Source: Rhodophyticola sp. CCM32
Lineage (GTDB): Bacteria > Pseudomonadota > Alphaproteobacteria > Rhodobacterales > Rhodobacteraceae
Assembly (NCBI RefSeq): GCF_004751985.1
Contig: NZ_CP038492.1
Span: 1,364,001 to 1,428,000, forward strand
Reading direction: 5' to 3'
Length of the DNA stretch: 64,000 nucleotides
Shown here in pieces: positions 11,238 to 63,033 of this stretch. Under the pieces are notes generated by a model. The model did no database searches, was not told the origin of the DNA, and worked only from the letters and a program-made list of their open reading frames with translations. How positions within the stretch are numbered: the first letter of the stretch is position 1; every line of letters begins with the position of its first letter. The translations under genes were made by a program, and so were the position numbers.

Positions 11238-11241
11238 AGTG

Positions 11242-11340: not shown

Positions 11341-11350
11341 CTACTTTAAA

Positions 11351-46303: not shown

Positions 46304-46368
46304 CCATCGCCAGCGCGTTGCGTCTCATATATCAGACATTCATGTGGCCTGCAGCATCTGTCAAAAAA

Positions 46369-46466
46369 GGGCTCTCTCGTTGAATTCGCTGCACTTTGTG
46401 CGAACGGCTGCTTAGCCAAGAAATTGCTTAAAGGGGGATTTAGCACTCAGCCGCACTCGACCCCAT
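46369..46466 (+). repeat. 98-bp inverted repeat, left copy
   Basis: Matches the reverse complement of 63805-63902 at 97 of 98 positions; homology stops sharply on both sides. No transposase gene is attached to either copy. Confidence 0.93.
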
Positions 46467-46500
46467 CCTGGCCAATGACGACTGAACGGGACAAGGGGTG

Positions 46501-46534
46501 AATTCGCTGCGACCGCACGAACGACCGCTTTATG
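46501..46534 (-). repeat. Mosaic repeat related to the inverted-repeat core
   Basis: Its reverse complement (AAAGCGGTCGTTCGTGCGG and so on) matches a word family AAGCRGYCRTTCGYGC...GCAGCG also found in the 98-bp repeats and at 47917-47950 and 48053-48086. It overlaps the end of the exporter gene. Confidence 0.55.
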
Positions 46535-47732
46535 CATTCGCACGTTGCGCGGCCCTTTGCCTGAGCCACGATGCCCAGATGGCGAAACCGAGGCCCAAGC
46601 CGGATGCTGCCAGCATCAATATAAGCAGCGTTTGCGCGCCATTGGTTTCGGTCACGGCTGCGCCTGTCGCCGCAGTCAAAATGGCACCTCCGGCAACGAT
46701 CAAAGCGCCACTTAGCCCTGCGGCACTGCCCGCAAGTTCCGGTCGCACGGACATCGCGCCAGCATTGCTGCCGGGCATTGTGATCCCATTTCCGAGGCCC
46801 ACGAATATCGTGCTCGCAAAGAAGATTTCTGGCGATGTGATGCTCAAAGCCAAGACGAGCAGACCTCCAACAAGCCCGATACAGGCTATGAGCCGGCCCG
46901 CAATCATCATGGTTGTCGGCTCAAATCCTCTGCCAAAACGCCCGGCAATGAAGCCGCCCAACATGAACCCGACCGTTATTGTTCCTATGTAGAATCCAAG
47001 CTCCGCCGTCGAAATTTCAAATACGGTTTGAGCCACAAGCGGAGCGCCCGTCAGGAAGATGTAGAACGCACCAACAGAGAAAGTGCCGCAGAGTGCGTAA
47101 GCCCAGAACAGCGGTTCGCGCAAAAGAGATGTCGCGCCAAGCACTGGCGTGCCGAGATCACTGTCCCGATCCCGCTTGGTTTCGCCCAAATCCAGCCAAC
47201 ACAAAATAAGTAGGCCAAATCCTGAAGCGGCATAGAATGCGAAGATGGATCGCCATCCCAGAAATGTGTCCAGCACACCTCCTAACATCGGACCAACCAT
47301 CGGGGCAATTGCCATGGTCATTCCAATGTAACCGATCAAACTAACAGCCTCTCGTTCTGATCTCGTGTCCCGGACGATGGCAAGAGACAGGGCGTATCCG
47401 CCGATTATCCCGCCCTGAAGCATCCGAGAAAACAAAAAAACCTCAACGCTTTGAGCAAGAGCGCAGCCCACCGACGCAAATGCAAAGACCAGCAACGCTC
47501 CCAAAAGGACTGGCCGTCTGCCAATCCGATCTGACAGCGGGCCAATGATCAGTTGGATGATAGCAGTTATTGCAAGATACCCAGAGACCGCCCAACTCAC
47601 CGTTCCATAGTCTGTTTCGAAATCGACGGCGATATTCGCTAGAGAAGGCAAGAACATATTGAGAGACATAGGCGAGAACCCTGTCAGGAGGATCAGTGTG
47701 ATCAAATGCGGCGGTTTTTTGGGGCGATACAT
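46530..47732 (-). CDS. Bcr/CflA-type multidrug efflux MFS transporter
   Basis: 400 residues with 12 predicted membrane helices. DHA1-type motifs are present: LTGFSPMSLNMFLPSLANIA at the start, the loop motif A IGPLSDRIGRRPVLLGALLV and motif C MAIAPMVGPMLGGVL. Bcr/CflA members export antibiotics such as chloramphenicol-type or bicyclomycin-type drugs. It is preceded by a leader peptide and a terminator hairpin, so induction by a ribosome-targeting drug is plausible (see the attenuator entry). The base composition is lower in GC than the first 45 kb. Confidence 0.88.
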   Translation of the reverse strand: MYRPKKPPHLITLILLTGFSPMSLNMFLPSLANIAVDFETDYGTVSWAVSGYLAITAIIQLIIGPLSDRIGRRPVLLGALLVFAFASVGCALAQSVEVFLFSRMLQGGIIGGYALSLAIVRDTRSEREAVSLIGYIGMTMAIAPMVGPMLGGVLDTFLGWRSIFAFYAASGFGLLILCWLDLGETKRDRDSDLGTPVLGATSLLREPLFWAYALCGTFSVGAFYIFLTGAPLVAQTVFEISTAELGFYIGTITVGFMLGGFIAGRFGRGFEPTTMMIAGRLIACIGLVGGLLVLALSITSPEIFFASTIFVGLGNGITMPGSNAGAMSVRPELAGSAAGLSGALIVAGGAILTAATGAAVTETNGAQTLLILMLAASGLGLGFAIWASWLRQRAAQRANA

Positions 47733-47756
47733 GTTGAAGTTCTCAGCTCTAGAAAC

Positions 47757-47783
47757 AAAAAAGCCCCCGAAGATTTCGGAGGC
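47757..47783 (-). terminator. Intrinsic terminator in the exporter leader (attenuator)
   Basis: On the minus strand GCCTCCGAA-ATC-TTCGGGGGC forms a nine-pair stem followed directly by TTTTTT, 25 bases before the exporter ATG and 26 bases after the stop of a short leader ORF. It is placed between the leader peptide and the gene it precedes, so it must be bypassed for expression. Confidence 0.8.
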
Positions 47784-47808
47784 GCATGGAAACGGATATG
47801 GAAAACCC

Positions 47809-47859
47809 TTATCGGACCATGCACCTCTTGCTGACTACGACGACGAATTTATCGGACAT
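47809..47859 (-). CDS. Leader peptide of the exporter attenuator
   Basis: A 16-codon ORF, MSDKFVVVVSKRCMVR, with a strong ribosome-binding site (AAAGGAGAAAAACC before ATG). It ends 26 bases before the terminator hairpin and 77 before the exporter start. It is too short to be an ordinary gene; its position matches ribosome-stalling leaders of resistance genes such as cmlA or erm. Whether ribosome stalling on the VVVVSKR stretch frees the exporter is inference. Confidence 0.7.
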   Translation of the reverse strand: MSDKFVVVVSKRCMVR

Positions 47860-48496
47860 GGTTTTTCTCCTTTGACACCGAGCCTAGTCAGACTGTTCTT
47901 CTATGGCAATCTAAAAAGCCGCCATTCATGCGTCGCGCAGCATCTGTGCCTTTGGGCTCTTCAGTAGCTTTCGCCGCATAATTCCCCAACGGCCGCTTAT
48001 GATACGATACTGCCCTCTCCCGGATTCGACCCCAGGAAGGAGACGCAGCGTTAAAAAAGCGGCCATTCGCGCAATCGCAGCATTGCGGAGGTATGGGGCT
48101 CCCCTTCATCTTTCGCGGCGCGTTGCCCGAACGCTGGCTGCCGAAGCGCGAATGTCGGCGCATCGAACAAACACAGATAAGTATCAGAGGTATAGCCCGC
48201 AATGCCAACGGCGGGTTTTAAACTGCCCTCACCCTCTATCACGCTGCACCGGCATCGGGCGGCAGTGAGCCCAGAATGCCGAATGCTGCATCCGTTTCGA
48301 GTGACCGGTTTTTATTCCCAGAAGATTGCCGTGTGAATCCCAATAACACCGCCGTCCAGTCCTATTGGGATTAGGCGCTTTGAACAAAAGTATTCAAAAC
48401 CAGCAAGATGTCTCCTCGGAAAACCAATTTTTGTTCTCGTAGGAGCGTGAAGACAGCATGGGGACAGTTGTCCACCAACTCTGCATTTAGACTTAA
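47860..48496. other. Gene-free repeat-rich space between exporter and luxR
   Basis: About 640 bp without a supported gene. It holds the exporter promoter and two copies of the mosaic repeat (47917-47962 and 48053-48098, both reading AAGC[CG]GCCATTC and GCAGCAT). A 10-bp perfect inverted repeat AATCCCAATA/TATTGGGATT (48336-48372, 17-base spacer) lies 3' of luxR. No T-run marks it as a terminator. Confidence 0.6.
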
Positions 48497-49231
48497 TCAC
48501 TTTCGGATCGTGTGCAGAATTAACCTCCGCTGAATCGCGATTGCAACAGCTTGCGTCTTTGACGCTGCTCCGAGTTTCGCGGATGCGTTCTGGATATAGA
48601 AGTTTACGGTGCGTTCGCTGAGGCCGAGGATTTTGGCAGTTTCCCAGCAACTTTTACCTTCGCTCGACCAGATCAACACATCTTTTTCCCTTGGCGATAA
48701 GACGACATCTGCGTTTTTTGTCTCGGTTGTTCTGGTGATGGACGAGTGAACTAGAAAACCGAAATAGATGAGATCAGACAGCAGGTGCTTCTTGATCAAT
48801 CGCCATTCTCCGGCTGACTCCTGTGAACTGACCGAGAAGAGTGCTTGTCCCCCGTCAGGGGCACGTATCGGTATCGAAAGGCCCTTTGCGCTGACACCGA
48901 ACTCAGCGGCCTCGCCAAAGAACTTTCTTGCGTGCTTGTCACTGCTGGGAACGCTGCTCCAGTCGAAAGGCAATAAGCCGCGAAAACTGTTGGAGACGAC
49001 GGGATCACTGGCCTCATATCCCATAGCCACATAACGTTCTTCCCAAGCCTTGGAGTATGTTGTTATGAGCTCTACCGGCGGCGCAGCTAAGTTGTGGGCG
49101 TTGAGTTGCATGTAGGCAAGATCAGACAGCCCAAACTGCCGACCGAACTTTCGAAGGTAGTTCGGCTTGTCATCTGATCTCTCGAAATGGGCGACGTCTT
49201 CAACAAACGCCTCTGAAATATTTAACTTCAT
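48497..49231 (-). CDS. LuxR-family autoinducer-binding transcriptional regulator
   Basis: 244 residues from ATG 49231. The N-terminal autoinducer domain keeps the TraR-type contact residues at correct spacing: Trp and Tyr in AWEERYVAMGYEASDPV, the following Asp-Pro, and Trp 15 residues later (FDWSS). The C-terminal LuxR helix-turn-helix is LSPREKDVLIWSSEGKSCWETAKILGLSERTVNFYI. It is divergent from luxI, so the pair forms an acyl-homoserine-lactone circuit. Low GC compared with the first 45 kb indicates acquisition. Confidence 0.92.
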   Translation of the reverse strand: MKLNISEAFVEDVAHFERSDDKPNYLRKFGRQFGLSDLAYMQLNAHNLAAPPVELITTYSKAWEERYVAMGYEASDPVVSNSFRGLLPFDWSSVPSSDKHARKFFGEAAEFGVSAKGLSIPIRAPDGGQALFSVSSQESAGEWRLIKKHLLSDLIYFGFLVHSSITRTTETKNADVVLSPREKDVLIWSSEGKSCWETAKILGLSERTVNFYIQNASAKLGAASKTQAVAIAIQRRLILHTIRK

Positions 49232-49569
49232 GAATGTTAGTCTCACAGAACACAGTCATAAAATGTCGGATAACGGTACAACCTAAAAGAAACCAAGAGA
49301 GGGATAGCCAACTAATCTAAAACTGTCCTTCACTTTCGTTACCTTATATTTGCGTCAGATTTATGAGATCAAGTCACACGGCCAATGTCAGCCAGAACGC
49401 GCCGACAAGCCTTAGAAACGCGCGATCTCCCCTCGTTGCAAAGATCGCAGGCCGAACCGCAGCGAAGACACCGTAAGAAAGCACAATACGTCACTTTCGC
49501 AGTAGTGCCAGGATCTCGGCAAAGACTATTTTCGCTTTCACACCGAAGTCATAAGGGAGGGTGCCGGCG
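49232..49569. other. Divergent luxR-luxI promoter region
   Basis: 338 bp, AT-rich in the luxR-proximal part. It must contain both promoters. I could not find a convincing lux-box palindrome; the best dyad, CACT-N8-AGTG at 49492-49507, is too weak to call. Confidence 0.5.
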
Positions 49570-50175
49570 ATGATAGTGACCGCTCATGCCAATGAATTTG
49601 AGAAGAATCTTGATCTGTTTGACCAGATGTACCAGCTCCGTGCGCGCCAGTTCAAAGACCGCCGAGACTGGCGCGTCGATGTGATCGCCGGCCGAGAACG
49701 TGACAAGTTCGACGAGATGAATCCACTTTATGTTTGTGTGGTCGATCCAAGCCGCAAGCTCTTAGCTTCGCTTCGCCTTCTACCAACAATCGGACCTCAT
49801 ATGCTGTCGGAAGTATTCCCGGAAGTGATGGGGGACTCGGGCATCGTTAGAAACCCGCTAGTCATCGAAAGCTCACGCTTCTGCGTGGACACTGCTGCCT
49901 GCAAACAGTCGGGACCGGGAGGTGTTAATTTGGTGACACGAGAACTGCTTGGCGGGCTCTTTCAGACCGCCAGGGACGCAGGCATGACCCATGTCATCTC
50001 TGTTTATGATGTGTTCATGGAGCGTATCCTGCGGCGGTCCGGTTGTCCCTTCGAAAGGCTCGGGCCTGTTGTCGAATATGATGGGCTGAAAACGGTTGCA
50101 GGCATGTGCGAAGCGTCCGCCGAAATCATCAACGCGATATCTTGGAGGCCAGCTTCGCGAGCCGTTGCTGCCTGA
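49570..50175 (+). CDS. Acyl-homoserine-lactone synthase LuxI family
   Basis: 201 residues from ATG 49570 with GGGAGGG before it. Invariant LuxI residues are visible: YQLRARQFKDRRDW (Arg, Phe, Trp), FDEMNPLYVCVVD (acidic pair region), LLPTIGPHML and ESSRFCVD (Glu, Arg). It makes an N-acyl homoserine lactone from S-adenosylmethionine and an acyl-ACP or acyl-CoA. It lies divergently from luxR and upstream, in the same direction, of the racemase-ligase cluster. Confidence 0.93.
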   Translation: MIVTAHANEFEKNLDLFDQMYQLRARQFKDRRDWRVDVIAGRERDKFDEMNPLYVCVVDPSRKLLASLRLLPTIGPHMLSEVFPEVMGDSGIVRNPLVIESSRFCVDTAACKQSGPGGVNLVTRELLGGLFQTARDAGMTHVISVYDVFMERILRRSGCPFERLGPVVEYDGLKTVAGMCEASAEIINAISWRPASRAVAA

Positions 50176-50219
50176 CACTCTGCAGCAGGCTCTGTGGTGA
50201 GCTTCGCGAGCTAGAGCAG

Positions 50220-50319
50220 AAATCGTTTAATCTGAATCAAAATTCGCTGCCTCCGGGTCAGCAAGCTACTGATACCGAAAGTGAATTTTGATGAGCGATG
50301 GTGCAGAATAAAACGATTT
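50220..50319. repeat. Nested palindromic intergenic repeat, copy 2
   Basis: Same family as 11242-11340, in the opposite orientation, with AAATCGTTT/AAACGATTT ends and a central GTCAGCAAGCTACTGATA hairpin. It separates luxI from the racemase gene and could dampen read-through between them. Confidence 0.85.
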
Positions 50320-50341
50320 CGCTATAGAAGGGAGAATTTCT

Positions 50342-51085
50342 TTGAATACGCAACGCACTATTCGGCAAGCAGACGTCGTGGGAACAGTTGCAAATGAACA
50401 AGCGCCTCTAATTGGCCTGATTGGGGGTATGGGCTCACTCGCAACTATTGAGGCTTACACGAGGTTGATGCAGGCGCTGCCGGAAAAAGACCGGCACGTC
50501 ATCGTCGAAAACCTGCCGATGGAGAATGTTTTTGACCATCTGTCGGCAACAACCATCTTCAGTATTCGCGGGTCAATACAGCGGCTTAGCACTGCAGGCG
50601 TAAAGGTTGTCGGAATCCCTTGCAACACAGTGCACTGCTATTCCTCCGAGATTGAGCAAGAGTGTTCAAAGCAAGGCATTCGCTTTCTAAGTATTATCGA
50701 GCAAACAACTAGGGCGGTTGTTCGTCGACGCAGCCAAAAGGCGGCTATTTTAGCGACCCCTACTGGCGCGGAACTATACAAGACTGCCATTGAGGATGCC
50801 GGTGTGGGCGTAAGCTTGCCCTCCAAAGACGAACAGTCACAGATAAACGATGTGGTTCGGGCAATTTTGGAAGACCCAAGCCCAACGTCGCTCGCAATCG
50901 CAAGAACGACCCTGGAACGGATCGCGACATCACAACGCGAAAACGGTGCGGATACCGTAATCCTGGGCTGCACTGAGCTCCCATTGGCCTTTCGGCATGA
51001 CCAGCCAATGAGCTTCATTTCTACAATTGATGCCTTGGTCCAGGGCTTTGTCACGGAGATAGAAAATTGGAAAGTCTACGCGTAG
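50342..51085 (+). CDS. Aspartate/glutamate racemase family protein
   Basis: 247 residues. Pyridoxal-independent racemases of this family use two cysteines; both are present, in GIPCNTVHCY and ILGCTELPLA, with the GLIGGMGSLATIEAY N-terminal motif. The likely product is D-aspartate, D-glutamate or a related D-amino acid. The start is TTG at 50342, with AAGGGAG at the correct distance; no ATG near that point fits. The following ligase gene overlaps its 3' end by 19 bases, so the two are made together. Confidence 0.85.
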   Translation: MNTQRTIRQADVVGTVANEQAPLIGLIGGMGSLATIEAYTRLMQALPEKDRHVIVENLPMENVFDHLSATTIFSIRGSIQRLSTAGVKVVGIPCNTVHCYSSEIEQECSKQGIRFLSIIEQTTRAVVRRRSQKAAILATPTGAELYKTAIEDAGVGVSLPSKDEQSQINDVVRAILEDPSPTSLAIARTTLERIATSQRENGADTVILGCTELPLAFRHDQPMSFISTIDALVQGFVTEIENWKVYA

Positions 51086-52061
51086 GTCTGCTCTATGGTG
51101 GTTGGTCATATGAGGCCTACTTATGTGCTCACCCTTCAATTGAACGAACTCTGAATGCACTTGGCCACGACGTGATCAGCATTCAAACAGCGGATGCCAA
51201 TCTGGCAAGCCGTCTGATCGATGCGAAGCTCGATGTCGCTTTTCTGGCAAGCCACGGTTTCTTTCATGAAGACGGACGACTTCAGGGTCTCTGCGAGTGG
51301 GTTGGGTTGCCATATACTGGGCCGAACCACTTCTCGTCCTCAGTTTGCATGAACAAAGTTCTATTCAGGCCGATTGCTGATCGGTACTCTGATTGTCCGC
51401 TACCGTATCTGGTAGCTAGGAATGACGTGACCAAGCTAAGTTATCAAGACGCAAGAGCTTGTTTGGGTGCCAACGAAATGATCCTGAAGCCGGCTCTTTC
51501 TGGCGCGTCAGTTGGTATCAAAGCCATTAGGCATGAGGGTGATTTTGGCCCGTCTCTTGAAAAAACCGTAAGCCTGTATGGCGAGACGATCGTTGAACCC
51601 TTGCTCTCGGGATTTCGTGAACTTTCAGTAACGGTCCACGACTTCTCCGGCCGCGTCGAAGTTCTCGACGTGTGCGAACTTTTAACCGGGGGGAGTTGTT
51701 CGATTTCGATATGAAGAACGGCTACAATCCGATCCGCAAAGAGCTTGCTGCGGATCTGTCGGATCAACTGACAGACAAGCTCAAAGCGATGGCAGCCTCC
51801 ATCTACGAAGATATCGGCCTGGAAAGCATCGTTCGTATTGACGCGCTTCTGGACCAGGACGAGAATATTCATGTGCTTGAAGCCAACACCCTTCCCGGGC
51901 TTATGCCTCAATCTGTTGCCCCAGCGGCTGCCCAACGACATGGTATGGGGTACGATGCTCTTATTCAGAACATCCTGGAGGCAGGACTCCGCAAGAAACG
52001 ATTTGGTGTCGCGAAACAAACCGAAAATCAGCCGAGACTATCTGAGAGCGTTGCACTCTGA
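51067..52061 (+). pseudogene. D-alanine-D-alanine ligase-like ATP-grasp enzyme, frameshifted in this sequence
   Basis: Part one (51067 to about 51693) and part two (to 52061) lie in different frames and join in the G6 run at 51688-51693; one more G gives an enzyme of about 331 residues. Features: N-terminal RVGLLYGGWSYEAY and ASHGFFHEDGRLQGLCEWVGLPYTG, ATP-grasp ILKPALSGASVGIKAI, EPLLSGFRELSVTV, and the metal motif RIDALLD...VLEANTLPGL. It would join two amino acids using ATP. The start is TTG with GGAG upstream, within the racemase gene. As it is not next to cell-wall genes, it probably serves a dedicated pathway with the racemase rather than peptidoglycan. Confidence 0.85.
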
Positions 52062-52673
52062 ATGGAACAATCAACCGGCGTCCCCTATTATTCGCAGTGG
52101 CAGAATCCAGATTTGACCGAATCAATCATAGCCGGGGCTGATCCGTGTGACGATCCACTCTGGCCGCAGAGCGGTTTTGAGAATGCTGCCGATTATCGAT
52201 ATTGGTCTGTGCGGCTCTGTGGGATTGCCTGCCTGCGATCAATTCTTGGTTCACGAAATGCCAGTGTTCCAACCCAATATGAACTGTTGGTAGATGCACT
52301 TGCATGGGGCGTTTACAAGAAAAGGGAAGACGGGACCGTCCTTGGCATGATCTACCAGCCGTTCTGTGAATGGGTTAGAGCTAGATTTGGGCTCCAAGCG
52401 CTTTTCTTCGAGCACCAGCCGTTAACTGACGCTCTGGAAATCCGTGACACAAACCACTTCCTGATTATGTCGGTTAGCCCGGACATCCGTGAACCTCAGT
52501 TGTCCAACCCTCCCAAGGGGGGTCATTTGGTTCTGGTTACGTCGCATGGCAAGGAAGAACTAAGGTTTCACAACCCATCAGGTATCCCACCTGAACACTC
52601 AGACGTTCGACTCAGGCAAAACACTTTCGAAAAGTTCTACGCAGGCAGAGGTATCCTTATCAAAGATGACTAG
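52062..52673 (+). CDS. C39-like cysteine peptidase/transferase
   Basis: 203 residues, starting at the base after the ligase stop. A papain-like triad is visible: Cys in RLCGIACLRSIL, His in PKGGHLVLVTSHG and Asn in LRFHNPSG, as in peptidase C39-like and BtrH-type proteins. There is no signal peptide, so it acts in the cytoplasm. It could trim or transfer a peptide or amino acyl group on the product of the preceding enzymes; this is inference. Its 3' end overlaps the exporter gene by eight bases. Confidence 0.75.
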   Translation: MEQSTGVPYYSQWQNPDLTESIIAGADPCDDPLWPQSGFENAADYRYWSVRLCGIACLRSILGSRNASVPTQYELLVDALAWGVYKKREDGTVLGMIYQPFCEWVRARFGLQALFFEHQPLTDALEIRDTNHFLIMSVSPDIREPQLSNPPKGGHLVLVTSHGKEELRFHNPSGIPPEHSDVRLRQNTFEKFYAGRGILIKDD

Positions 52674-53571
52674 CACCTCTACGGTTTCCCTCTCTCTCTT
52701 GCTGGTTGTTCTTTGGGCAGCAAATTGGCCTGCAACTCAGCTTGCACTGGAAGACATGCCACCGATTACGTTCCGTTTGATTACCCTGCTTGGAGGAGCG
52801 CTCGCACTGTATGGGCTATGTGCAAGGTCAGGCGAACGCCTATCAGTGCCGCGAAATCAGTGGGTGAAACTTACGCTACTGGCGCTACTGAACGTCGGTA
52901 TCTTCAACGTCCTATCTGCGTATGCAATCGCGTTGCTTGAAGGCGGGAGAGCCGCAATCATCGCTTTTACAATGCCTGTCTGGGTTACGATTATCGAAGC
53001 CTTGCTGGGCACACGCATCACTGGCGGCCGTGTTTTATCAATCTTCACGGGCGTGATCGGCCTGTCGATCGTCGCATACTCGGTCGCCACTGATGCAAGC
53101 TACGAACCTGTCTCAGCGATCTTGATGAGCTTTGCCGCATTTTGTTGGGCAGTGGGTTCCGTGTGGCTTTCAAGATCTCCGTTGGAAGTTGGAGCAAAGC
53201 CCACGGCCATGTGGATGATGATCATCAGTGCGCTTGCCGTGGCTTTTCTGTTTCCCTTGCAAGTTGAGCCGGTGCTGAGTTTTCCCGTAACGCTGGCAGG
53301 TTGGTCAGGTCTGCTTTTTGCTACAGTGATCGGCATGGCTTTTTGTCAGTCACTTTGGTTTTCGTTGCTAGACCAGCTTGGGTCCATACGTGCTGCATAC
53401 ATTCTTCTCGCAATACCTCCGGTGGGTGTGTTCCTGAGTTGGTTCATCGCAAACGCGCAGGTCACGGTCATCGATGCTATTGGGTTATCTTTTCTTTTAA
53501 TTGCCGCCCTTATCAGCGCGATGTTCCGAGACCCAGAGCCACACACGGCAATTGATGCCAAAGCCACCTGA
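52666..53571 (+). CDS. EamA/DMT-family transporter
   Basis: 301 residues, ten predicted membrane helices in two EamA repeats: SLSLLLVVLWAANWPATQLAL in the first and AILMSFAAFCWAVGSVWLSR in the second. Such carriers export amino acids, small peptides or metabolites. It overlaps the C39-like gene and most likely exports the product of the cluster. Confidence 0.88.
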   Translation: MTSTSTVSLSLLLVVLWAANWPATQLALEDMPPITFRLITLLGGALALYGLCARSGERLSVPRNQWVKLTLLALLNVGIFNVLSAYAIALLEGGRAAIIAFTMPVWVTIIEALLGTRITGGRVLSIFTGVIGLSIVAYSVATDASYEPVSAILMSFAAFCWAVGSVWLSRSPLEVGAKPTAMWMMIISALAVAFLFPLQVEPVLSFPVTLAGWSGLLFATVIGMAFCQSLWFSLLDQLGSIRAAYILLAIPPVGVFLSWFIANAQVTVIDAIGLSFLLIAALISAMFRDPEPHTAIDAKAT

Positions 53572-53730
53572 GATTCAGGCATCTCAGCGCGCACTGTAAT
53601 AAAAAGCTGTCATTGGCGCAGCCGCAGCGAACTTTCACTTTGTCCGCATCCCGTGAATCTGCCGCTTCAAAATTTCTGCGCTATCCACGAATGGCCGAAG
53701 TCTCCGCTGCACCGCGCACAGGCCTTCATT

Positions 53731-53768
53731 GGCCCCATCGGAAGGTTTGTGCTTAGGATCCCGTTAAG
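53731..53768 (+). repeat. Tn3 left terminal inverted repeat
   Basis: 38 bp, ending in TTAAG as in the Tn3 family. Pairs with 57892-57929. Confidence 0.88.
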
Positions 53769-53788
53769 GCGGAACAATGTGGGAACTT

Positions 53789-54358
53789 TTATGTTTCCGC
53801 TGTTTCCTTGATCAATCTGTAAGCCGTTGATCTTGCTATGCCCAATTGTTTTGAGGCTTGTCCGGCGGTCATTCCAGCCTGCACTAGGTTTTGCAGAGCC
53901 AAGACTGTTTCTGGATTGAGGGGAGGCCTCCCCGGTTTTTTACCCTTCATTCTGGCGGCCTGGATGCCATCTTTGGTGCGCTCTGAGATGAGACGGCGTT
54001 CGAAGTGGGCAATGGCCCCGAAAACGTGGAAGATCAGCTCACCGGCTGCAGATGTGGTGTCGATCCGCTCTTCGAGGCTGATAAGCCCGATGTCCTGATC
54101 CTTTAGGTTTTCGACGGTTTCCAGCAGTTCCTTGAGTGAACGCCCGAGCCTGTCTAGCCGGATGATGGCCAGGCTATCGCCGGGGCGGGCGTGATCGATC
54201 AAAGCGGATAGGCCAGGGCGGTCAAATTGTTTACCAGACACAACATCTTCGAACACGCGGATGGCTCCGGCCTCTTTGAGGCGGGTGATTTGCCCGCTAA
54301 GGTCTTGATCAGTGGTCGAGACCCTTGCGTAGCCAAGAATATCACCTTGGCGTTTCAT
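53789..54358 (-). CDS. tnpR: Tn3 resolvase (serine recombinase)
   Basis: 189 residues. Catalytic Ser in GYARVSTTDQDL, with IIRLDRLGRSLKELLETV and the helix-turn-helix AGQASKQLGIARSTAYRLI. It resolves transposon cointegrates at the res site. Its start overlaps the VOC stop by four bases. Confidence 0.93.
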   Translation of the reverse strand: MKRQGDILGYARVSTTDQDLSGQITRLKEAGAIRVFEDVVSGKQFDRPGLSALIDHARPGDSLAIIRLDRLGRSLKELLETVENLKDQDIGLISLEERIDTTSAAGELIFHVFGAIAHFERRLISERTKDGIQAARMKGKKPGRPPLNPETVLALQNLVQAGMTAGQASKQLGIARSTAYRLIKETAET

Positions 54359-54765
54359 ATTGGCTGAGCCTTTGGTTCAATCAGGTCCCAAAGATTGCCA
54401 AATTTGTCGTTAAAGACAGCGACTGTCCCGTAGGGTTCTTGGCGTGGCTCTTCTTCAAAAATGACACCATTACTTTTGTAGTGCGCGTAATCGCGAGCAA
54501 AGTTATCGGTTTCCAGAAATAAGAAAACACGGCCTCCGGTCTGGTTGCCAATAGCGGCGCTCTGAACAGGAGTTGCGGCTTTCGCAAGCAGCAGATTGCT
54601 CCCTTTGCCTGGTGACACTATGACCCAACGTTTGTGATCTGAGAGTGGTGTGTCCTCGATCAGAGAAAACCCCATGACATCGACATACCAAGCAAGCGCC
54701 TCATCATAGTCAGGCACCACGAGCGCAATGGTGGCCAATGTTCTTTGGTGCGACGGCTTGTTCAT
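54355..54765 (-). CDS. VOC family (glyoxalase/bleomycin-resistance-like) protein
   Basis: 136 residues with the VOC fold: LATIALVVPDYDEALAWYVDVMGF, then GGRVFLFLETDNFARDYAHY and FNDKFGNLWDLIEP, including possible metal ligands (Glu near the end). It is co-oriented and coupled with the resolvase inside the transposon, so it is a passenger gene. Its substrate is unknown; resistance or detoxification would be a guess. Confidence 0.85.
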   Translation of the reverse strand: MNKPSHQRTLATIALVVPDYDEALAWYVDVMGFSLIEDTPLSDHKRWVIVSPGKGSNLLLAKAATPVQSAAIGNQTGGRVFLFLETDNFARDYAHYKSNGVIFEEEPRQEPYGTVAVFNDKFGNLWDLIEPKAQPI

Positions 54766-54868
54766 GTCTTTTAATTGTTCGTTTTAGAGGCAGGTTTCTG
54801 TCCTGCGTAAAAGTGGGCTTCATGCCTTGGAAACCTGTCTCATTATTCGTCCTTATATTAAGCATTGT

Positions 54869-54894
54869 CTCAAAATGATCAATCACATTTTGAG
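54869..54894. promoter_or_regulatory. Likely part of the Tn3 res/operator site
   Basis: CTCAAAATG and CATTTTGAG form a perfect 9-bp inverted repeat, 8 bases apart, directly before the transposase ribosome-binding site and in the divergent space between transposase and resolvase operon, the normal place for res. Confidence 0.6.
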
Positions 54895-54903
54895 GACACA
54901 CAA

Positions 54904-57858
54904 ATGGTACGACGATCCCTGCTGACCGCAAGAACCCGACAAGAATTGTTCGGCATTCCGGAAGACCCAAAGCAACTGACGCGTTTTTACACTCTGAGCC
55001 GGAACGATCATGGTTTGATCCGAACCCGGCGTCGGGATGAAAATCGCCTTGGGCTTGCGATACACATCGCGCTGTTGCGGCATCCGGGTCAGGGATGGCT
55101 TGATGGCTCGATCCTCCCGGAGTCATTCATCATGTGGCTGGCTGAACAGTTGGCCATGCCGGACATCGATCTGGTTGAATATACTCGCCGTCGCAAAACC
55201 AAGTCAGAGCACCACCAGATTGCCATGGGCCATCTTGGTTTACGCCCCTTTCAAGCAGCGCATTTGGAAACTGCCACGCTGCTTGCGCGCGAAGCCGCTT
55301 TTGCAACAGACCATGGTCAAGATATCATGACCGCCCTGTGCACGGGATTGCGCAAGCAGCGTTTGGTTTTACCGAGCACAGACACGTTGGAGCGCGTTGC
55401 CTTGAAAGGCAGGGCTGCGGCACGACGGCAGGCGGCAGCCGGTATTTTTGATGTCCTGAGTGCGGATCACCGGACTTCATTGCAAAATCTGTTGATCAAT
55501 GACCATGAGGTTGGTCAGTCCCGTTTGACTTGGCTTCGCGGCTATCTTCACTCCACGAACCCGGCCAGCATGCATGCTCTGCTGGCCCGCATTCGATATC
55601 TCAGGGAGTTGAACCTGCCCCCTGATCTGGGCCAAGACATCCACCCGGTGCGTCTGGGCAAGTTCGCGCGGGAAGGCGCAGTTGCCCCTCTTAGCCTGCT
55701 GAATGATTTTGGCGAACGTCGCCGCATCGCGACTGTCGCGGCACAGTTGCTCGACCTTCAGGTCATGTTGACAGATGCGGCCATTTCAATGTTTGAGCGC
55801 CTTACCGGTCAGTTGTTCACGCGCTCAAAAAACAAACAGGATCAGGTTTGGGCCATGGGAAAGGCGCGCGTTGGTCGCCTGATGCACTTGTTTGGCAACA
55901 CGATAGATACCATGGCGTTGGCCCATGAAGCTGGCACTGATCCATTTGAGGCTCTGGATGGAGAAATCGGCTGGCAGCGTCTGTTACAACACCGTGATGA
56001 AATCGCTGCCTTTGGCGAACTAGCCACAGGTGACCCATTGGAATTGGCAACCGAACGCTACGCCTACATGCGCAAGTTTGCTCCGGCCTTTCTCGATACA
56101 TTTACGTTCAGTGCGCCGGCAGCCGGGCGCGATTTGCAGGAGGCTGTCAATTTGCTGAGAGATCACAACAAATCCGGCAAACGCAAACTACCTGCTGATG
56201 CGCCGATGCCGTTCCCAGCCAAACATTGGCCAAAGTTGATTGTTGAAGGCGGGCAACCCAAGCGCCGAGTCTATGAAACTGCTGTGGTGGCCACTTTGCG
56301 TGATCGGTTGCGTGCTGGCGATGTTTGGGTGGAAGGTAGCCAGGATTATCGGCGCTTTGATAGTTACCTGATCTCTCGCGAAACGGCGGAGGCAGAACTG
56401 AGAAAACAAGGGCTGGAAACAGACGCCGATGCATGGCTTCAGGGTCGCCGCCATGTTCTGAACCATCGGCTTTCTGAGATTGAGCACAAACTGAAGCGCG
56501 GCCAGCTCGACGGCTTGCGTTTGGAAAAGGGGCGGCTGCGGATCACCCCGCATGAAGCCGACACGCCGCCGGAGGCCATCCGTTTGGAACGTGCGATGGA
56601 TGCCATCATGCCGCGCATCCGGATCACCGACCTGCTTTGGGAGGTCAATACACATACAGGATTCTTGGACGCCTTCACCGACTTGCGATCAGGCCGCAAT
56701 CACGAAGACCCTGCCGTGTTACTTGCCACCATTTTGGCCGGGGCGAGCAATCTTGGTCTGGAACGGATGGCCTATGCATCCAAGCATGTCAGCCATTCCC
56801 AACTGACCTGGGGAAGTATGTGGTATTTGCGGCCAGAAACCTACGCCGACGCTCTGGCCAGGATTGTAGATGCCCACCATGATCTACCGTTCGCAGGGCA
56901 TTGGGGTGAGGTTGGCAACACGTCCTCAGACGGGCAGTTCTTTGCCGCCAATCGCGGGAGCGGCCTGATCAATGCCAAGTACGGTCCTGACCCCGGGCTG
57001 AAAATCTATTCTTTCTTGTCTGGCCGCTACGGGTCGTTCCATTCTTCTGTGATTGGTGCGACGGCGGGTGAAGCGCCCTTTGTTTTGGACGGGCTGGTCG
57101 GCAACCCCATGCTGCTCAACCCACTCATACACTACACCGATACCGGGGGCGTCTCAGATCACGTCTTCGCACTGTTCCACTTGCTCGGCATGAAATTTGC
57201 ACCCCGTCTGCGCGACTTCCCAGATCGAAAACTGGCCTGCTTTGGATCGCCACGCCAATGGCCGTTCTTGGCACCGTTGATGGGCAGTCCTATCAAAGAT
57301 GATGTCATCGCTCAGCATTGGGATGATGCCATCCGGCTGGCGGGCAGCGCCAAAACCAAGGCGATCAAACCATCGGCCACATTGAGAAAACTTGGCGGAT
57401 ACCGACAGCAAAACCGGCTCTACCTGGCACTCGGCGAGATCGGCCGCATTGAGCGTACACTGTTCATGCTGGATTGGCTGGAGAATGCTGAACTGCGCAA
57501 AGAGTGCCAGGCAGGCCTTAACAAAGGCGAGGCACGGCATACGCTGGCAAAGGCCGTGTTCGCCCATTCCCAGGGCCGTATTTATGATCGTTCAGATGCT
57601 GCGCAACAGAAACGCGCCATGGCCCTCAATATGGTTATCGCGGCCATCATGTTCTGGAATACGCTCTACATGGACAAGGCATCCGCACACCTGGCACGTC
57701 AAGGGCAAATCCCCAATCCAAAACTGCTCTGCCACACATCACCGCTTGGCTGGGAACACATTATCCTGACCGGCGATTTCGACTGGCATTCTGGGGCCGC
57801 TGAGCGCAAAATAGCACGACCGTTACACCTCAATGCCACGAGAAAGTGGGTGGGATGA
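54904..57858 (+). CDS. tnpA: Tn3-family transposase
   Basis: 984 residues from ATG 54904 (GAGG eight bases before). N-terminal RRSLLTARTRQELFGIPEDP, long central DUF4158-like and DDE domains, with TSSDGQFFAANRGSGLINAKYG (first catalytic Asp region), DGLVGNPMLLNPLIHYTDTGG and the C-terminal RAMALNMVIAAIMFWNTLYM. Full length for the family and with no visible break, so likely functional. Confidence 0.94.
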   Translation: MVRRSLLTARTRQELFGIPEDPKQLTRFYTLSRNDHGLIRTRRRDENRLGLAIHIALLRHPGQGWLDGSILPESFIMWLAEQLAMPDIDLVEYTRRRKTKSEHHQIAMGHLGLRPFQAAHLETATLLAREAAFATDHGQDIMTALCTGLRKQRLVLPSTDTLERVALKGRAAARRQAAAGIFDVLSADHRTSLQNLLINDHEVGQSRLTWLRGYLHSTNPASMHALLARIRYLRELNLPPDLGQDIHPVRLGKFAREGAVAPLSLLNDFGERRRIATVAAQLLDLQVMLTDAAISMFERLTGQLFTRSKNKQDQVWAMGKARVGRLMHLFGNTIDTMALAHEAGTDPFEALDGEIGWQRLLQHRDEIAAFGELATGDPLELATERYAYMRKFAPAFLDTFTFSAPAAGRDLQEAVNLLRDHNKSGKRKLPADAPMPFPAKHWPKLIVEGGQPKRRVYETAVVATLRDRLRAGDVWVEGSQDYRRFDSYLISRETAEAELRKQGLETDADAWLQGRRHVLNHRLSEIEHKLKRGQLDGLRLEKGRLRITPHEADTPPEAIRLERAMDAIMPRIRITDLLWEVNTHTGFLDAFTDLRSGRNHEDPAVLLATILAGASNLGLERMAYASKHVSHSQLTWGSMWYLRPETYADALARIVDAHHDLPFAGHWGEVGNTSSDGQFFAANRGSGLINAKYGPDPGLKIYSFLSGRYGSFHSSVIGATAGEAPFVLDGLVGNPMLLNPLIHYTDTGGVSDHVFALFHLLGMKFAPRLRDFPDRKLACFGSPRQWPFLAPLMGSPIKDDVIAQHWDDAIRLAGSAKTKAIKPSATLRKLGGYRQQNRLYLALGEIGRIERTLFMLDWLENAELRKECQAGLNKGEARHTLAKAVFAHSQGRIYDRSDAAQQKRAMALNMVIAAIMFWNTLYMDKASAHLARQGQIPNPKLLCHTSPLGWEHIILTGDFDWHSGAAERKIARPLHLNATRKWVG

Positions 57859-57891
57859 CGCGATACAGTTAAAGTTCCCACATTGTTCCGT

Positions 57892-57929
57892 CTTAACGGG
57901 ATCCTACGCACAAACCTTCCGATGAGGCC
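57892..57929 (-). repeat. Tn3 right terminal inverted repeat
   Basis: 38 bp, matching 53731-53768 with three differences. Confidence 0.88.
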
Positions 57930-57951
57930 CGCACGACCGAATGATTGAGGC

Positions 57952-57974
57952 CCCCGTCAGCAGGCGGGGCTTTT
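57952..57974 (+). terminator. Weak intrinsic terminator
   Basis: CCCCG and CGGGG flank a short loop followed by CTTTTG. It lies just outside the transposon between two convergent genes. The stem is short. Confidence 0.45.
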
Positions 57975-58134
57975 GCGTTATGGTGTGATCCAGGTGGCAG
58001 CAGCTTCAGGGTGACCTATCGGTGGGCAACCTGAAGGCTCCCCGCCAACAGGCCTGGCGCTTCGCGCGGATGGGCATTTCATGCCTGAGTGTGTGGCGAC
58101 CCTATAAACAAGGCAGACATAGAATGTGCCTGCT

Positions 58135-59892
58135 CTATTTGCTCGCTGTAGAGCCAAGTTCAGAAGATAGGCTTTCAAAAAGCCGTTCGTATCTTGCTTT
58201 CGAAAAATCCATGAACCCTTCAAGATCGTCGGGAACGTCACCTAGGGAATGCAGGTCGCAGTAGTTAGCCCTGGTTTTTTTGTTATCGAAGTTCTCCTTT
58301 AGCCATGCTTTGGGGAGAGTGGCATTTTTCTCTTTGTTGAGCTGGCCTTCCAAAAGTTGGAGGTTTGCCACTGTGTTTGCCCAATCCTGCATTTCCTCCT
58401 GGTCGTCATCAGAAAAGCCAGCCTTTGTCAGCTTGCTTGATGTGAAGCGCGAGATTGGGAACACATGATCTACGTGGAACTGGTTATTTAGATCGACGTG
58501 AGGGAAGAGCATCGAAAGCAGCAGGAAAGTTCGCTTGTCCCCATAATTCATGTCGAGCAGTTCATACAGCTCATCATCGCTGAACGAAAGTTGTTTGCCT
58601 CGTTTGGACATGACGCTTGCAAGAGCATCGGATGGAAATGTGTTATCGGGCGCTTTCTTTAGCACGTCGCGCAAAGCGGTCAGCAAGGTGTCCAGACCGC
58701 TGCCCCAGATGCCAGATGGTTTCAGCAGTGAGCGGAACAACCAATCTCGTATGGCAGTGCGGTCTTTCTTATGCTTACCTTTGATCTCAAAATTCTCTGG
58801 GCTTTCGATTTTGTATAGGTAGTAAGCAATCGGAAGCAGAGAACTTTCAGCCCGGAGGTTGGCACCAGACAGCCCAAAGCTTGATGCTAGCTGAACAGTT
58901 CGAGTCAGGGCAGATCGGATTGCTGGCCAGTTGTCCTGCAAAAGGGCCATATTTTTCTTGGAAAAATTATCAACTTTGAAACCGACACTGGCGATGTCAG
59001 ACAGCATCAGGCCTGCCTTAAGAACAAAATCATGGCTGAAATTGAAGCCAGCGCCTATGTCATTGAGCGTATCCACGAGTGAGTGAATCTCTTCTCTTGC
59101 GTCTAACTCTGTCCACTGGGCAACGGCGATGGAAAGGAGCAAGTCGGAGTAGCTCAGAATCGTTCCACCAGAGTTGAGGCGGATGAAAATATTGAGAACA
59201 CGGTTCAGTTCTTGAGAGGCTTCCTCGTAGTAAGCCACATTGGGGTTTGACCGAATTACCTCAAAGAGCCGATTTAGCGTGGTTCGGGCTGTTTTCCTCT
59301 GTTCTTTATCAAAATCGTATTCTTCTTCGACGAGATCGGGGATAGCAGCCAGGCTGGCGAAATCTAAAATCTTGCCTACCTGAAACCAGCACTTTTCCTG
59401 ATCGCTTTCGGCGGCTTGAGATTCCAAAAATTTGAATTCGTAGAAGACCCCATTTTCAGTCTCGCTGCCATCATGCAGCAGGTTGATATACAAATACCTT
59501 ACCGGGTAAGCCTCTGGATTTTTCTTGTGTTTCCCCTTGAGCTTCAACCGCATCGACCCGCGCAGGCCAATATTTAGCGCTGTGAGACGTTGTTGTCCGT
59601 CAAGTACAGCGGTGACGCCGAGGCCCTTTGGAACCTCTACCTTTGGACTGTGTACCCCTTTGAATTCGTGGTAATTTCGAACGAAGTCATAGAACTGAAA
59701 TTCGGTGGCTGTGTCTGGACGAACTTTCCAGAACAGGAAAGCACCAAAAGGGTAGCCCTGCATCAAGCTATCGAAGAGCCGTTCGATTTGTTCAGGGCGC
59801 CAGACGAACTCGCGTTGAATGGCGGGAAGAACATAGTTGTTCTGCGCAATTTCATTGACTGCTTTTTCAATCGTCCCACCGGGGTGATACAT
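58135..59892 (-). CDS. DUF262/DUF1524 protein (GmrSD-like, probable anti-phage nuclease)
   Basis: 585 residues from ATG 59892. N-terminal DUF262 motifs: LPAIQREFVWRPEQIERLFDSL, AVLDGQQRLTAL (the DGQQR nucleotide motif) and IFIRLNSGGTILSYSDLLL. The C-terminal DUF1524 HNH-like nuclease motif is HVDHVFPISRF followed by NTVANLQLLEG. Similar proteins include type IV restriction enzyme GmrSD and SspE, which use NTP-sensing and cut phage DNA. It stands alone here, without modification genes. Assigned by domain order only. Confidence 0.85.
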   Translation of the reverse strand: MYHPGGTIEKAVNEIAQNNYVLPAIQREFVWRPEQIERLFDSLMQGYPFGAFLFWKVRPDTATEFQFYDFVRNYHEFKGVHSPKVEVPKGLGVTAVLDGQQRLTALNIGLRGSMRLKLKGKHKKNPEAYPVRYLYINLLHDGSETENGVFYEFKFLESQAAESDQEKCWFQVGKILDFASLAAIPDLVEEEYDFDKEQRKTARTTLNRLFEVIRSNPNVAYYEEASQELNRVLNIFIRLNSGGTILSYSDLLLSIAVAQWTELDAREEIHSLVDTLNDIGAGFNFSHDFVLKAGLMLSDIASVGFKVDNFSKKNMALLQDNWPAIRSALTRTVQLASSFGLSGANLRAESSLLPIAYYLYKIESPENFEIKGKHKKDRTAIRDWLFRSLLKPSGIWGSGLDTLLTALRDVLKKAPDNTFPSDALASVMSKRGKQLSFSDDELYELLDMNYGDKRTFLLLSMLFPHVDLNNQFHVDHVFPISRFTSSKLTKAGFSDDDQEEMQDWANTVANLQLLEGQLNKEKNATLPKAWLKENFDNKKTRANYCDLHSLGDVPDDLEGFMDFSKARYERLFESLSSELGSTASK

Positions 59893-60039
59893 GCCTAATA
59901 CCTTTGACCTGTGATTTGCCTGTTTTAGCAACTCTACAAAGCACACGGCAGAACGTCACCTTGAAACCATCCCATCAAAAGTGACCAATTCAGGCAACTT
60001 CAACTTCTTTCTTTGCTGCACTGTCGTTAGGTTCACGGC

Positions 60040-60699
60040 ATGGAAAAAGCCGACATCAATGCTCGCCGTGATCTCAAGAAACTAAGCGAATTTCTGACAT
60101 CGATCTCGGCCCGAATCCTTCAAGTTTCGAACCGTAAAGCCAGCGTGGCGATGGGCGCGGCGACCAACGCGGCAGTCGGATCGGCCTTTGTGGCATCCGT
60201 TACCGGCGTAGTCGGATCGCTCGGATCGGCGGGCACGGGCGCGGCCATCGCCGGGCTTTCAGGCGCGGCCAAAACTTCGGCGACCTTTGCTTGGATTGGC
60301 GGCCTTGTGGGCGGCGGAGTGGCAGCAGGAACTCTCGTTCTAGGAGCGGGGGCACTGGGCGCAGGCATCTATGGGTCTATTAAAGTCCGTCGTGCGATCC
60401 TTGGGTATTCGCGCCGCCACGAGGAAATAACCGAAGCGGAGTTGCGAATTCTGGAGGCGTGCAGCATTCTGACAACGGCAATTCGCGACACTCTGGCAGC
60501 AGGCGCTGAAATCGGCGGTCGTGAAGTCGTCCTCATGTCCCGTATAGGGATCAAACCGCTCTTGATGGAAGTCGATGCCGCTCTGCAAGCGGGATTGTTT
60601 CGCGATATAAACATCTACAACCGCGCACGTCTGAGGGGACATGTGAACAACTTGCGGTCTTATCTTAGGAGGCTCGATGCCCATGCAGACCCGTCGTAG
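60040..60699 (+). CDS. Glycine-zipper membrane protein of unknown function
   Basis: 219 residues. The middle (about 36-115) is almost entirely Gly/Ala/Val/Ser hydrophobic sequence (VGSAFVASVTGVVGSLGSAG, FAWIGGLVGGGVAAGTLVLG) and could form two or three helices or a pore; the flanks are charged and helical. A nuclease-like gene begins before its end (22-base overlap with an AGGAGG site), so the two are a coupled pair. I do not recognise the family. Confidence 0.7.
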   Translation: MEKADINARRDLKKLSEFLTSISARILQVSNRKASVAMGAATNAAVGSAFVASVTGVVGSLGSAGTGAAIAGLSGAAKTSATFAWIGGLVGGGVAAGTLVLGAGALGAGIYGSIKVRRAILGYSRRHEEITEAELRILEACSILTTAIRDTLAAGAEIGGREVVLMSRIGIKPLLMEVDAALQAGLFRDINIYNRARLRGHVNNLRSYLRRLDAHADPS

Positions 60700-61237: not shown

Positions 61238-61523
61238 GCGGGTTCATTGAGAACGGCGTGGTGAAATCGGCTCTCGTAGGCGGTGCGCTTCACGCACGTG
61301 CGGCACTGCGGGGCGAACCGCTCGACGCGCAGCAGGTCCGATCAGCGCTTGAACTTGTGGGTGTGGGTGTAGGAACGGCGATCACAATGGATGTGCTTCT
61401 GAACCTAGCTTAGCGGATGGCTTCTGTAAGGCACCCTAATCAACCCTTTGCTACAGCCAGGGTGGCACAAAGAACCGTTTGCGTCGGTGCGGTAGGTCCT
61501 TAGATTTATTTCCTTGGTTGGGG

Positions 61524-62096: not shown

Positions 62097-62148
62097 TATG
62101 ACTTTCCTTACCCTTGGAAAAATCCAGTAGAACAACCACTTAAACTTA

Positions 62149-62841: not shown

Positions 62842-62863
62842 CAAACGAAAGGCCAAAAACGGT

Positions 62864-63033
62864 CGATACTGGTGAAAAACTCGACCATGCGCCAGCGCAG
62901 CCCACTTTGCGAGTATTCTGTCCTGCTGGTTCGTCGGACAGGGCCCTATCAGGGACAAAAAGGCTTGATAGTAGAACGTTTGTTCACTTTCTGAGGCCAA
63001 GCTTAAGATCAACGGAGTTTTTCACCAGTATCG
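62864..63033. mobile_element. 170-bp MITE-like element
   Basis: Perfect 19-bp terminal inverted repeats CGATACTGGTGAAAAACTC (62864-62882) and GAGTTTTTCACCAGTATCG (63015-63033) surround about 130 bp with no gene. This is the structure of a non-autonomous insertion element, probably trimmed from a larger IS. No target duplication was recognised. Confidence 0.75.

What the first reader, a model, noticed from the sequence alone, without database searches (positions are those of the whole stretch)
48497..53571. Quorum-sensing pair next to a D-amino-acid/dipeptide biosynthesis-like cluster
luxR and luxI are followed, on the same strand as luxI, by four tightly overlapping genes: a two-cysteine Asp/Glu racemase, a D-Ala-D-Ala-ligase-like ATP-grasp enzyme, a C39-like cysteine peptidase/transferase and an EamA exporter. 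Together they read as make a D-amino acid, ligate it, process it, export it, under acyl-homoserine-lactone control. I know no described pathway with this exact set. Genes, overlaps and motifs are seen; the product and quorum control are inference.
Basis: partly seen in the sequence, partly recalled or inferred. Interest (0 to 1): 0.82.

Follow-up and report, generated by a model that had tools for sequence, protein, structure and literature searches.

The report
Broken dipeptide gene cluster beside luxI
A foreign stretch of DNA holds quorum-sensing genes next to genes that look able to make, process and export a small peptide with a mirror-image amino acid, but the key linking enzyme is split in two here, and the part that recurs in distant bacteria is a little-studied two-gene partnership that was found there without the quorum-sensing gene.

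Summary
The genes are real: luxR, luxI, a two-Cys racemase, a Ddl-family ATP-grasp ligase, a C39-like cysteine enzyme and an EamA carrier, in low-GC DNA (0.515 against 0.614). Two things were missed. The ligase is two ORFs in different frames (51067-51714, 51672-52061), and a 117-bp hairpin repeat lies between luxI and the racemase. The four-gene set was found in no other locus searched. LuxI does not travel with it: 2 of 87 C39 loci have luxI within 10 kb, opposite strand; 0 of 9 in a phylum sample. What recurs is Ddl + C39: 7 of those 9, and 8 of 14 opened plasmid records (Agrobacterium, Rhizobium, Streptomyces, Nonomuraea). Streptomyces plasmids add a PLP enzyme and MurF, like a Van operon with a C39 enzyme where VanX would be. 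The window ligase has lost two of three D-Ala-D-Ala triad residues (positions recalled). Most likely: a D-amino-acid dipeptide cassette, C39 acting on the dipeptide, now probably broken. The two nearest LuxIs lie beside other amino-acid cassettes with carriers, so quorum control is plausible but unshown. The Ddl-C39 pair is the interesting part.

The parts
48497..49246 (-). luxR: autoinducer-binding LuxR-family regulator, 249 aa
   Evidence: PF03472 E 6.6e-26 and PF00196 E 1.9e-17
49561..50175 (+). luxI: acyl-homoserine-lactone synthase, 204 aa; closest found 62% (Ruegeria PR1b plasmid) and 59% (G939)
   Evidence: PF00765 E 2e-42; relatives
50212..50328 (.). 117-nt MITE-like hairpin repeat between luxI and the racemase
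   Evidence: 96% copy at G000:C1:2752873-2752989, 84% copy at window 11235-11342; RNA fold of 50205-50341 z -2.74
50342..51085 (+). Asp/Glu-racemase-family amino acid racemase, TTG start, 247 aa, catalytic Cys94 and Cys210
   Evidence: PF01177 E 1.7e-21; TIGR00035 above cut-off, CuyB below cut-off; 1jfl E 1e-19; positions
51067..51714 (+). N-terminal part of a Ddl-family ATP-grasp ligase, 215 aa
   Evidence: PF01820 E 9.3e-10; Dala_Dala_lig_C positions 39-104; alignment A5
51672..52061 (+). C-terminal part of the same ligase in another frame, 129 aa
   Evidence: Dala_Dala_lig_C positions 106-204, E 2.1e-19; alignment A6
51688..51693 (+). G6 run where the two ligase frames overlap
   Evidence: sequence
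52062..52673 (+). C39-like papain-fold cysteine enzyme, 203 aa; Q12, C53, H155, N171 invariant; cytosolic location inferred by eye, no signal-peptide predictor run
   Evidence: alignment of 29 sequences; AlphaFold2 pLDDT 91.8; PDB matches
52666..53571 (+). EamA/DMT-family carrier, 301 aa
   Evidence: PF00892 E 1.5e-29, two repeats
53731..57929 (.). Tn3-family transposon with 59-bp terminal inverted repeats, next to but not including the cluster
   Evidence: inverted repeat I2; resolvase, TnpA PF01526 E 8.1e-125
46364..63907 (.). 17.5-kb lower-GC segment bounded by 106-nt inverted repeats (97%) that contains the cluster
   Evidence: inverted repeat I1; GC

Best explanation
A horizontally acquired small-molecule cassette. 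The racemase supplies a D-amino acid (substrate unknown), the Ddl-family ATP-grasp enzyme joins it into a dipeptide other than D-Ala-D-Ala, the C39-like enzyme works on that dipeptide (hydrolysing the unwanted one or the product, or transferring its acyl part), and the EamA carrier moves amino acid or product across the membrane. The neighbouring luxR/luxI may switch it on. In this genome the ligase frame is broken and a repeat lies between luxI and the operon, so the pathway is probably no longer working unless the break is a sequence error. Shown: gene families, the split, the lower-GC segment, the recurrence of Ddl + C39, the conserved Cys/His/Asn set. Inferred: substrates, direction of transport, C39 location and reaction, quorum control.
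For: Family matches. Ddl next to C39 in 7 of the 9 other C39-bearing genomes in a sample of 398 Pseudomonadota genomes; beside C39 or one gene away in 8 of 14 plasmid records opened by C39 hit, out of 53 matched; adjoining in G522 and in 1 of 80 kept genome-contig loci (L089). R. rhizogenes plasmid pC6.5b has C39, Ddl and an EamA carrier in one row. The genome has a separate chromosomal Ddl, so this is a spare paralogue. The window ligase has Ala and Asn where its own chromosomal Ddl and the rhizobial partners (L005, L006, L089) have Ser and Tyr; by recall those positions are Ser150 and Tyr216 of the E. coli DdlB Glu-Ser-Tyr triad. The five actinobacterial partners aligned are also changed (Gly; Arg or Asn). 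The two nearest LuxIs sit beside an aminotransferase + LysE carrier and beside an SbnA-like enzyme, two ATP-grasp enzymes and an MFS carrier.
Against: The ligase is split. No other locus or genome searched has the racemase or the full set. The Streptomyces sets point to peptidoglycan precursors rather than an exported product. The rhizobial Ddl partners keep the Ser and Tyr of D-Ala-D-Ala ligases, so the pair as such need not make an unusual dipeptide. EamA carriers move many substrates (recalled). In the window's own C39 branch the other 10 rows have no Ddl beside them.
Confidence: 0.42

Rival explanations
1. Cell-wall precursor remodelling of the Van type: racemase makes a D-amino acid, the ligase makes D-Ala-D-X, the C39 enzyme is a cysteine-type D,D-dipeptidase (analogue of VanX) that removes D-Ala-D-Ala, and MurF builds D-X into lipid II. 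The window set would be a stripped or self-protection form.
Against: No MurF or other wall gene in the window cassette; there is an EamA carrier instead. No VanX/VanY/VanRS-type match in the cluster. No activity data.
Confidence: 0.25
2. A decaying passenger cluster: a once working cassette that arrived with foreign DNA and is now a set of remnants without function.
For: Split ligase, repeat before the operon, Tn3 starting 159 bp downstream of EamA, chimeric ORF just outside the segment, no DNA match in the 100 other genomes searched.
Against: The other frames of the cluster are open; racemase and C39 keep their catalytic residues and both ligase halves keep conserved motifs, so any break is recent.
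Confidence: 0.2
3. Use, not making: the C39 enzyme is a dipeptidase and the racemase feeds D-amino acids into central metabolism; the carrier imports or balances amino acids.
For: C39 relatives lie within 6 kb of DAO-type oxidases in 31 of 87 loci and of proline-racemase-family genes in 17 of 87, a hydroxyproline-type catabolic setting (the pathway name is recalled; of each list 14 loci were printed, Paraburkholderia, Trinickia and one Burkholderia record).
Against: A dipeptide-forming ligase makes little sense in a salvage set; the loci counted are mostly related Paraburkholderia, so they are few independent events.
Confidence: 0.1

Closest known systems
Van-type D-Ala-D-Ser / D-Ala-D-Lac operons (VanC-VanXY-VanT, VanHAX, often with MurF)
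   Same: A maker of a D-amino or D-hydroxy acid, a Ddl-family ligase and a peptidase in one operon; the Streptomyces relatives even carry MurF.
   Different: Peptidase candidate is a C39-like cysteine enzyme rather than an M15 metalloenzyme; no VanRS seen; the window has a carrier and LuxRI instead of MurF.
ATP-grasp dipeptide antibiotic clusters with their own exporter (bacilysin, dapdiamide; recalled)
   Same: ATP-grasp ligase plus amino-acid-modifying enzyme plus carrier in a short operon.
   Different: Ligase is of the Ddl family; C39-like enzyme present; no SbnA-like gene here (one is in the G939 luxI locus).
Peptidase family C39 (ComA, PCAT1 peptidase domains)
   Different: Free-standing protein of about 200 aa, not a domain of an ABC transporter; PF13529 below cut-off; no PDB sequence match up to E 1.
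Phytochelatin synthase and CtaG/AziU3-type papain-fold enzymes
   Different: No sequence relationship found; reaction unknown; functions of CtaG and AziU3 are recalled.

Membership tests
D-alanine-D-alanine ligase (Ddl) | Single intact ORF with N and C ATP-grasp domains | tested here: not met
   Two ORFs in different frames
D-alanine-D-alanine ligase (Ddl) | Glu-Ser-Tyr triad of D-Ala-D-Ala ligases (positions recalled from E. coli DdlB) | tested here: not met
   Glu16 kept, Ser replaced by Ala147, Tyr replaced by Asn (residue 16 of the C part) in alignments A5/A6; own chromosomal Ddl keeps all three
D-alanine-D-alanine ligase (Ddl) | Family score over a curated cut-off | tested here: inconclusive
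   N part: PF01820 39.5 bits (cut-off 34.6), PF07478 23.8 (cut-off 24); C part: PF07478 70.3; no NCBIfam cut-off reached among the 25 families shown for each half
Van-type precursor remodelling operon | Ddl-type ligase with D,D-peptidase and D-amino/hydroxy-acid maker in one operon | tested here: inconclusive
   Ligase halves and racemase present; whether the C39 enzyme cleaves D,D-dipeptides is unknown
Van-type precursor remodelling operon | VanX/VanY-type M15 peptidase or VanRS in the operon | tested here: not met
   None among the genes of the cluster in Pfam/NCBIfam scans
Peptidase C39 / PF13529 | Sequence score above Pfam cut-off | tested here: not met
   17.6 bits against 24
Peptidase C39 / papain-like fold | Papain-like fold with Cys-His-Asn and oxyanion Gln | tested here: met
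Peptidase C39 | Cleaves peptides | not testable with these tools
   Needs assay
Asp/Glu racemase (two-Cys, PLP-independent) | Two catalytic cysteines in PCNT and GCTE motifs | tested here: met
   C94 and C210 align with 1jfl
Asp/Glu racemase | Acts on Asp or Glu | not testable with these tools
   TIGR00035 'amino acid racemase' 99.1 bits, above its cut-off of 93.1; CuyB 127.9 of 190; aspartate/glutamate racemase NF007569 47.1 of 417
LuxI/LuxR quorum-sensing pair | Synthase and autoinducer-binding regulator side by side | tested here: met
LuxI/LuxR-controlled operon | lux box at the controlled promoter | tested here: inconclusive
   No palindrome above shuffled sequence in either gap; box consensus recalled, promoters of this group unknown
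Tn3 passenger cluster | Cluster lies between the transposon's terminal repeats | tested here: not met
   59-bp repeats at 53731-53789 and 57871-57929 exclude it

The most novel reading that the evidence does not exclude
The C39-like family is a dedicated partner enzyme of Ddl-family ligases: a papain-fold, cytosolic D,D-dipeptidase or D-dipeptide acyltransferase that, with lineage-specific racemases (or PLP enzymes that may act as such), lets bacteria of at least two phyla make or edit D-amino-acid dipeptides, for wall precursors in Streptomyces and for an exported, quorum-linked compound in the window's lineage.
Probability: 0.3. Interest if true: 0.75.

Novelty: new variant of a known kind. 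Interest (0 to 1): 0.5.

Why it matters
If the Ddl-C39 partnership is functional, it would be a second, cysteine-based way to edit D-amino-acid dipeptides beside VanX-type metallopeptidases, present on Agrobacterium, Rhizobium and Streptomyces plasmids, and it would give a testable activity to a family that record annotations call only 'C39 family peptidase'. For the window itself it warns that an attractive-looking quorum cluster may be broken.

Tried and rejected
Cluster carried by the adjacent Tn3: rejected, its terminal repeats exclude it. luxI and the four genes as one conserved operon: rejected, no other locus searched has the set. Lux box search: nothing above shuffles. Promoter scan: 4 found against 3.7 expected, uninformative. 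Phage carriage: no match in phages. Similar plasmid DNA: no megablast match. PDB sequence search with the C39 profile: no match at E up to 1, so only fold comparison informs. Racemase substrate from relatives: the matches listed for it are at most 34% identical, not informative; 'Asp/Glu' is only a family name. Other Ddl-like plasmid neighbourhoods, opened in search of a biosynthetic parallel, gave no clear one. Neighbours of the Azospirillum LuxI (57%, record without annotation, L151) could not be read reliably.

Literature: ten searches in the held open library; none listed a title or abstract start about Ddl + C39 or about LuxI with Ddl and a racemase. Only PMC8698665 was opened, by passages; the other listed papers, among them PMC11273654, were not opened. 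Subscription papers are mostly not held, so this is weak evidence of novelty.

Limits of counts: the 80 loci are the best 80 of 265 confirmed and are mostly Paraburkholderia, so counts on them are not independent events, and not all have 10-kb flanks (75 of 87 have 6 kb on both sides). The sample is the fairer one, but it scored at most 7 candidates per genome in the rows shown, counted only matches at E up to 1e-20, and its 7 Ddl pairs all come from one unnamed alphaproteobacterial family (f174). The C39 tree (29 rows) needs at least 5 changes of the Ddl label on well-supported branches, so the pairing was gained or lost repeatedly; it cannot say which, and 'no Ddl' is unsure for rows near a contig end (G237, L064). 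Most LuxI loci have only 1.5-kb flanks.
Full report
What is there. Between 48.5 and 53.6 kb lie luxR (-), luxI (+) and, on the luxI strand, a racemase, a Ddl-family ligase, a C39-like enzyme and an EamA carrier. Two details are not. The ligase is two ORFs: 51067-51714 carries the N domain and the first part of the C domain, 51672-52061 the rest (Pfam positions 39-104, then 106-204). The frames overlap around a G6 run at 51688-51693, one of 18 G runs of six or more in the window. Both halves keep conserved motifs of the family, so the split is recent or a sequence error; I cannot tell which without reads. Second, the 166-nt gap between luxI and the racemase holds a 117-nt repeat (50212-50328) with a 96% copy at G000:C1:2752873-2752989 and an 84% copy at 11235-11342. 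The stretch 50205-50341 folds into a long hairpin (z -2.74, 2 of 200 shuffles as stable); by eye the repeat ends just before the racemase's likely ribosome-binding site.

Setting. The cluster lies in lower-GC DNA: 0.515 against 0.614 for 1-45000, third-position GC 0.50-0.59 against 0.73 for one long gene outside it. A 17.5-kb segment is bounded by 106-nt inverted repeats at 46364-46469 and 63802-63907 (97%; a partial third copy lies at G000:C1:1432003-1432051). Just outside its left end is a chimeric ORF, 45290-46303, with a glycolipid-binding-type N part and an aldehyde dehydrogenase C part. A Tn3 unit with 59-bp terminal repeats starts 159 bp after EamA and does not include the cluster. By DNA, none of the 100 other genomes searched has the cluster.

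What recurs. In 398 Pseudomonadota genomes sampled, 10 including the own one have the C39 family at E up to 1e-20. I fetched the neighbourhoods of all 9 others, about 6 kb each side: Ddl is beside C39 in 7; none has LuxI, the window racemase or the window EamA by phmmer at 1e-6; one has a DAO-type oxidase; one has no other query gene. The 7 are all of one unnamed family, f174. In one of them (G1074) the C39 gene itself is in two frames. In the plasmid collection 53 records match; of the 14 that I opened by C39 hit, 8 have Ddl beside C39 or one gene away, 5 do not, and 1 has no annotation there and no Ddl by phmmer. In order-level and class-level samples the family is rare: 3 of 390 (one of them a weak partial match with two stops) and 2 of 385, own genome included. 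Of 87 C39 loci, most of them Paraburkholderia, 2 have LuxI within 10 kb, 3.7 and 6.5 kb away on the opposite strand (Trinickia).

Partners differ by lineage. Four Streptomyces records have Ddl, a PLP enzyme annotated as threonine/serine dehydratase or PLP-dependent, C39, MurF and a Mur ligase; Nonomuraea has Ddl, the PLP enzyme, C39 and an M55 D-aminopeptidase. The PLP enzyme of L008 scores best, below cut-off, with threo-3-hydroxyaspartate ammonia-lyase; whether it racemises or deaminates is not known. Three Agrobacterium records have a divergent GntR-type regulator, then C39-Ddl; R. rhizogenes pC6.5b has a PLP-aminotransferase-family gene, then C39-Ddl-EamA. G237, of the window's family, has C39 followed by a bifunctional PBP, with the contig end upstream. 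C39 lies within 6 kb of DAO in 31 of 87 loci and of proline-racemase-family genes in 17 of 87. D-amino-acid chemistry is the common thread.

Ligase specificity. Alignments of the halves show that the window ligase has Ala147 and, in the C part, Asn16 where the genome's own chromosomal Ddl and the rhizobial partners L005, L006 and L089 have Ser and Tyr. By recalled numbering these are Ser150 and Tyr216 of the E. coli DdlB triad. All five actinobacterial partners aligned are also changed there (Gly, and Arg or Asn). I therefore expect a product other than D-Ala-D-Ala for the window and actinobacterial ligases, while the rhizobial ones may still make D-Ala-D-Ala. The C39 enzyme would then pair with both kinds.

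LuxI. In 295 genomes of the family, own included, 225 have a LuxI match. I searched 33 loci outside the own genome (29 with 1.5-kb flanks, four plasmid loci with 8-kb flanks) plus a wider view of G939; none has the racemase, ligase, C39 or EamA of the window. Yet the two nearest LuxIs are suggestive: Ruegeria PR1b (62%) has luxI, aminotransferase, LysE carrier and luxR; G939 (59%) has luxR-luxI divergent from a GHMP kinase, an SbnA-like PLP enzyme, a glutathione-synthetase-like ATP-grasp enzyme, an MFS carrier and a second ATP-grasp enzyme. Against this, the Agrobacterium ones (55%) have glycosyl- and methyltransferases, and the Azospirillum one (57%) could not be read. So this LuxI branch seems to be shuffled beside small biosynthetic cassettes, which is the best available support for quorum control here; no regulatory site could be shown.

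Judgement. Most likely (0.42) a D-amino-acid dipeptide cassette of foreign origin, with the C39 enzyme acting on the dipeptide, now probably broken. Van-like wall remodelling is the main rival (0.25), then a dead remnant (0.20), then salvage (0.10). PMC8698665 (passages read) describes vanRSY next to racemase and Ddl-like genes in Allonocardiopsis and Murinocardiopsis and calls their role open; no C39 partner is mentioned in the passages shown.

Noticed in passing
L008, L096, L097, L114 (Streptomyces plasmids): Set Ddl - PLP enzyme - C39 with MurF and a Mur ligase beside it (their order and orientation vary), like a Van operon with a cysteine enzyme in place of VanX.
   Followed up: partly
L152:1582-8432 (G939): luxR-luxI of the same branch divergent from GHMP kinase, SbnA-like enzyme, GSH-synthetase-like ATP-grasp, MFS carrier and ATP-grasp_4: a possible diaminopropionate-type peptide cassette.
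   Followed up: partly
window 53731-57929: Complete-looking Tn3 transposon with 59-bp terminal repeats carrying a glyoxalase-family gene (54355-54765) between resolvase and transposase.
   Followed up: partly
window 46364-46469 and 63802-63907: 106-nt inverted repeats (97%) 17.3 kb apart bounding the lower-GC segment; a further partial copy at G000:C1:1432003-1432051.
   Followed up: partly
window 45290-46303: Chimeric ORF: glycolipid-binding-type N part joined to the C half of an aldehyde dehydrogenase; no orphan N half stood out in the list of ALDH matches of the genome.
   Followed up: partly
window 58135-61237: GmrSD-type (DUF262) gene with a strong match to PADLOC candidate HEC-05, and two small genes with a weak match to PDC-M09A and a fair one to PDC-M72B: possibly a defence patch on the same segment.
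   Followed up: partly
window 50212-50328, 11235-11342; G000:C1:2752873-2752989: Family of about 110-120-nt hairpin repeats in intergenic DNA.
   Followed up: partly
L153 (window coordinates about 64352-68008): ORFs that look like a second Tn3-type resolvase/transposase pair just past the window's right end (judged by eye).
   Followed up: no
L113:4850-8120 (Priestia plasmid): Ddl-like gene between a cysteine-desulfurase-family gene and a polyprenyl synthetase with a comX pheromone gene: another Ddl paralogue beside a signalling system.
   Followed up: no
L177 (G1074:C28): C39 gene of this genome is itself split over two frames next to an open Ddl frame.
   Followed up: no
L010-L063 (mostly Paraburkholderia, Trinickia): C39 relatives with a BetR-domain regulator nearby (63 of 87 C39 loci within 6 kb) and in part DAO or proline-racemase-family genes; function unknown.
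   Followed up: partly
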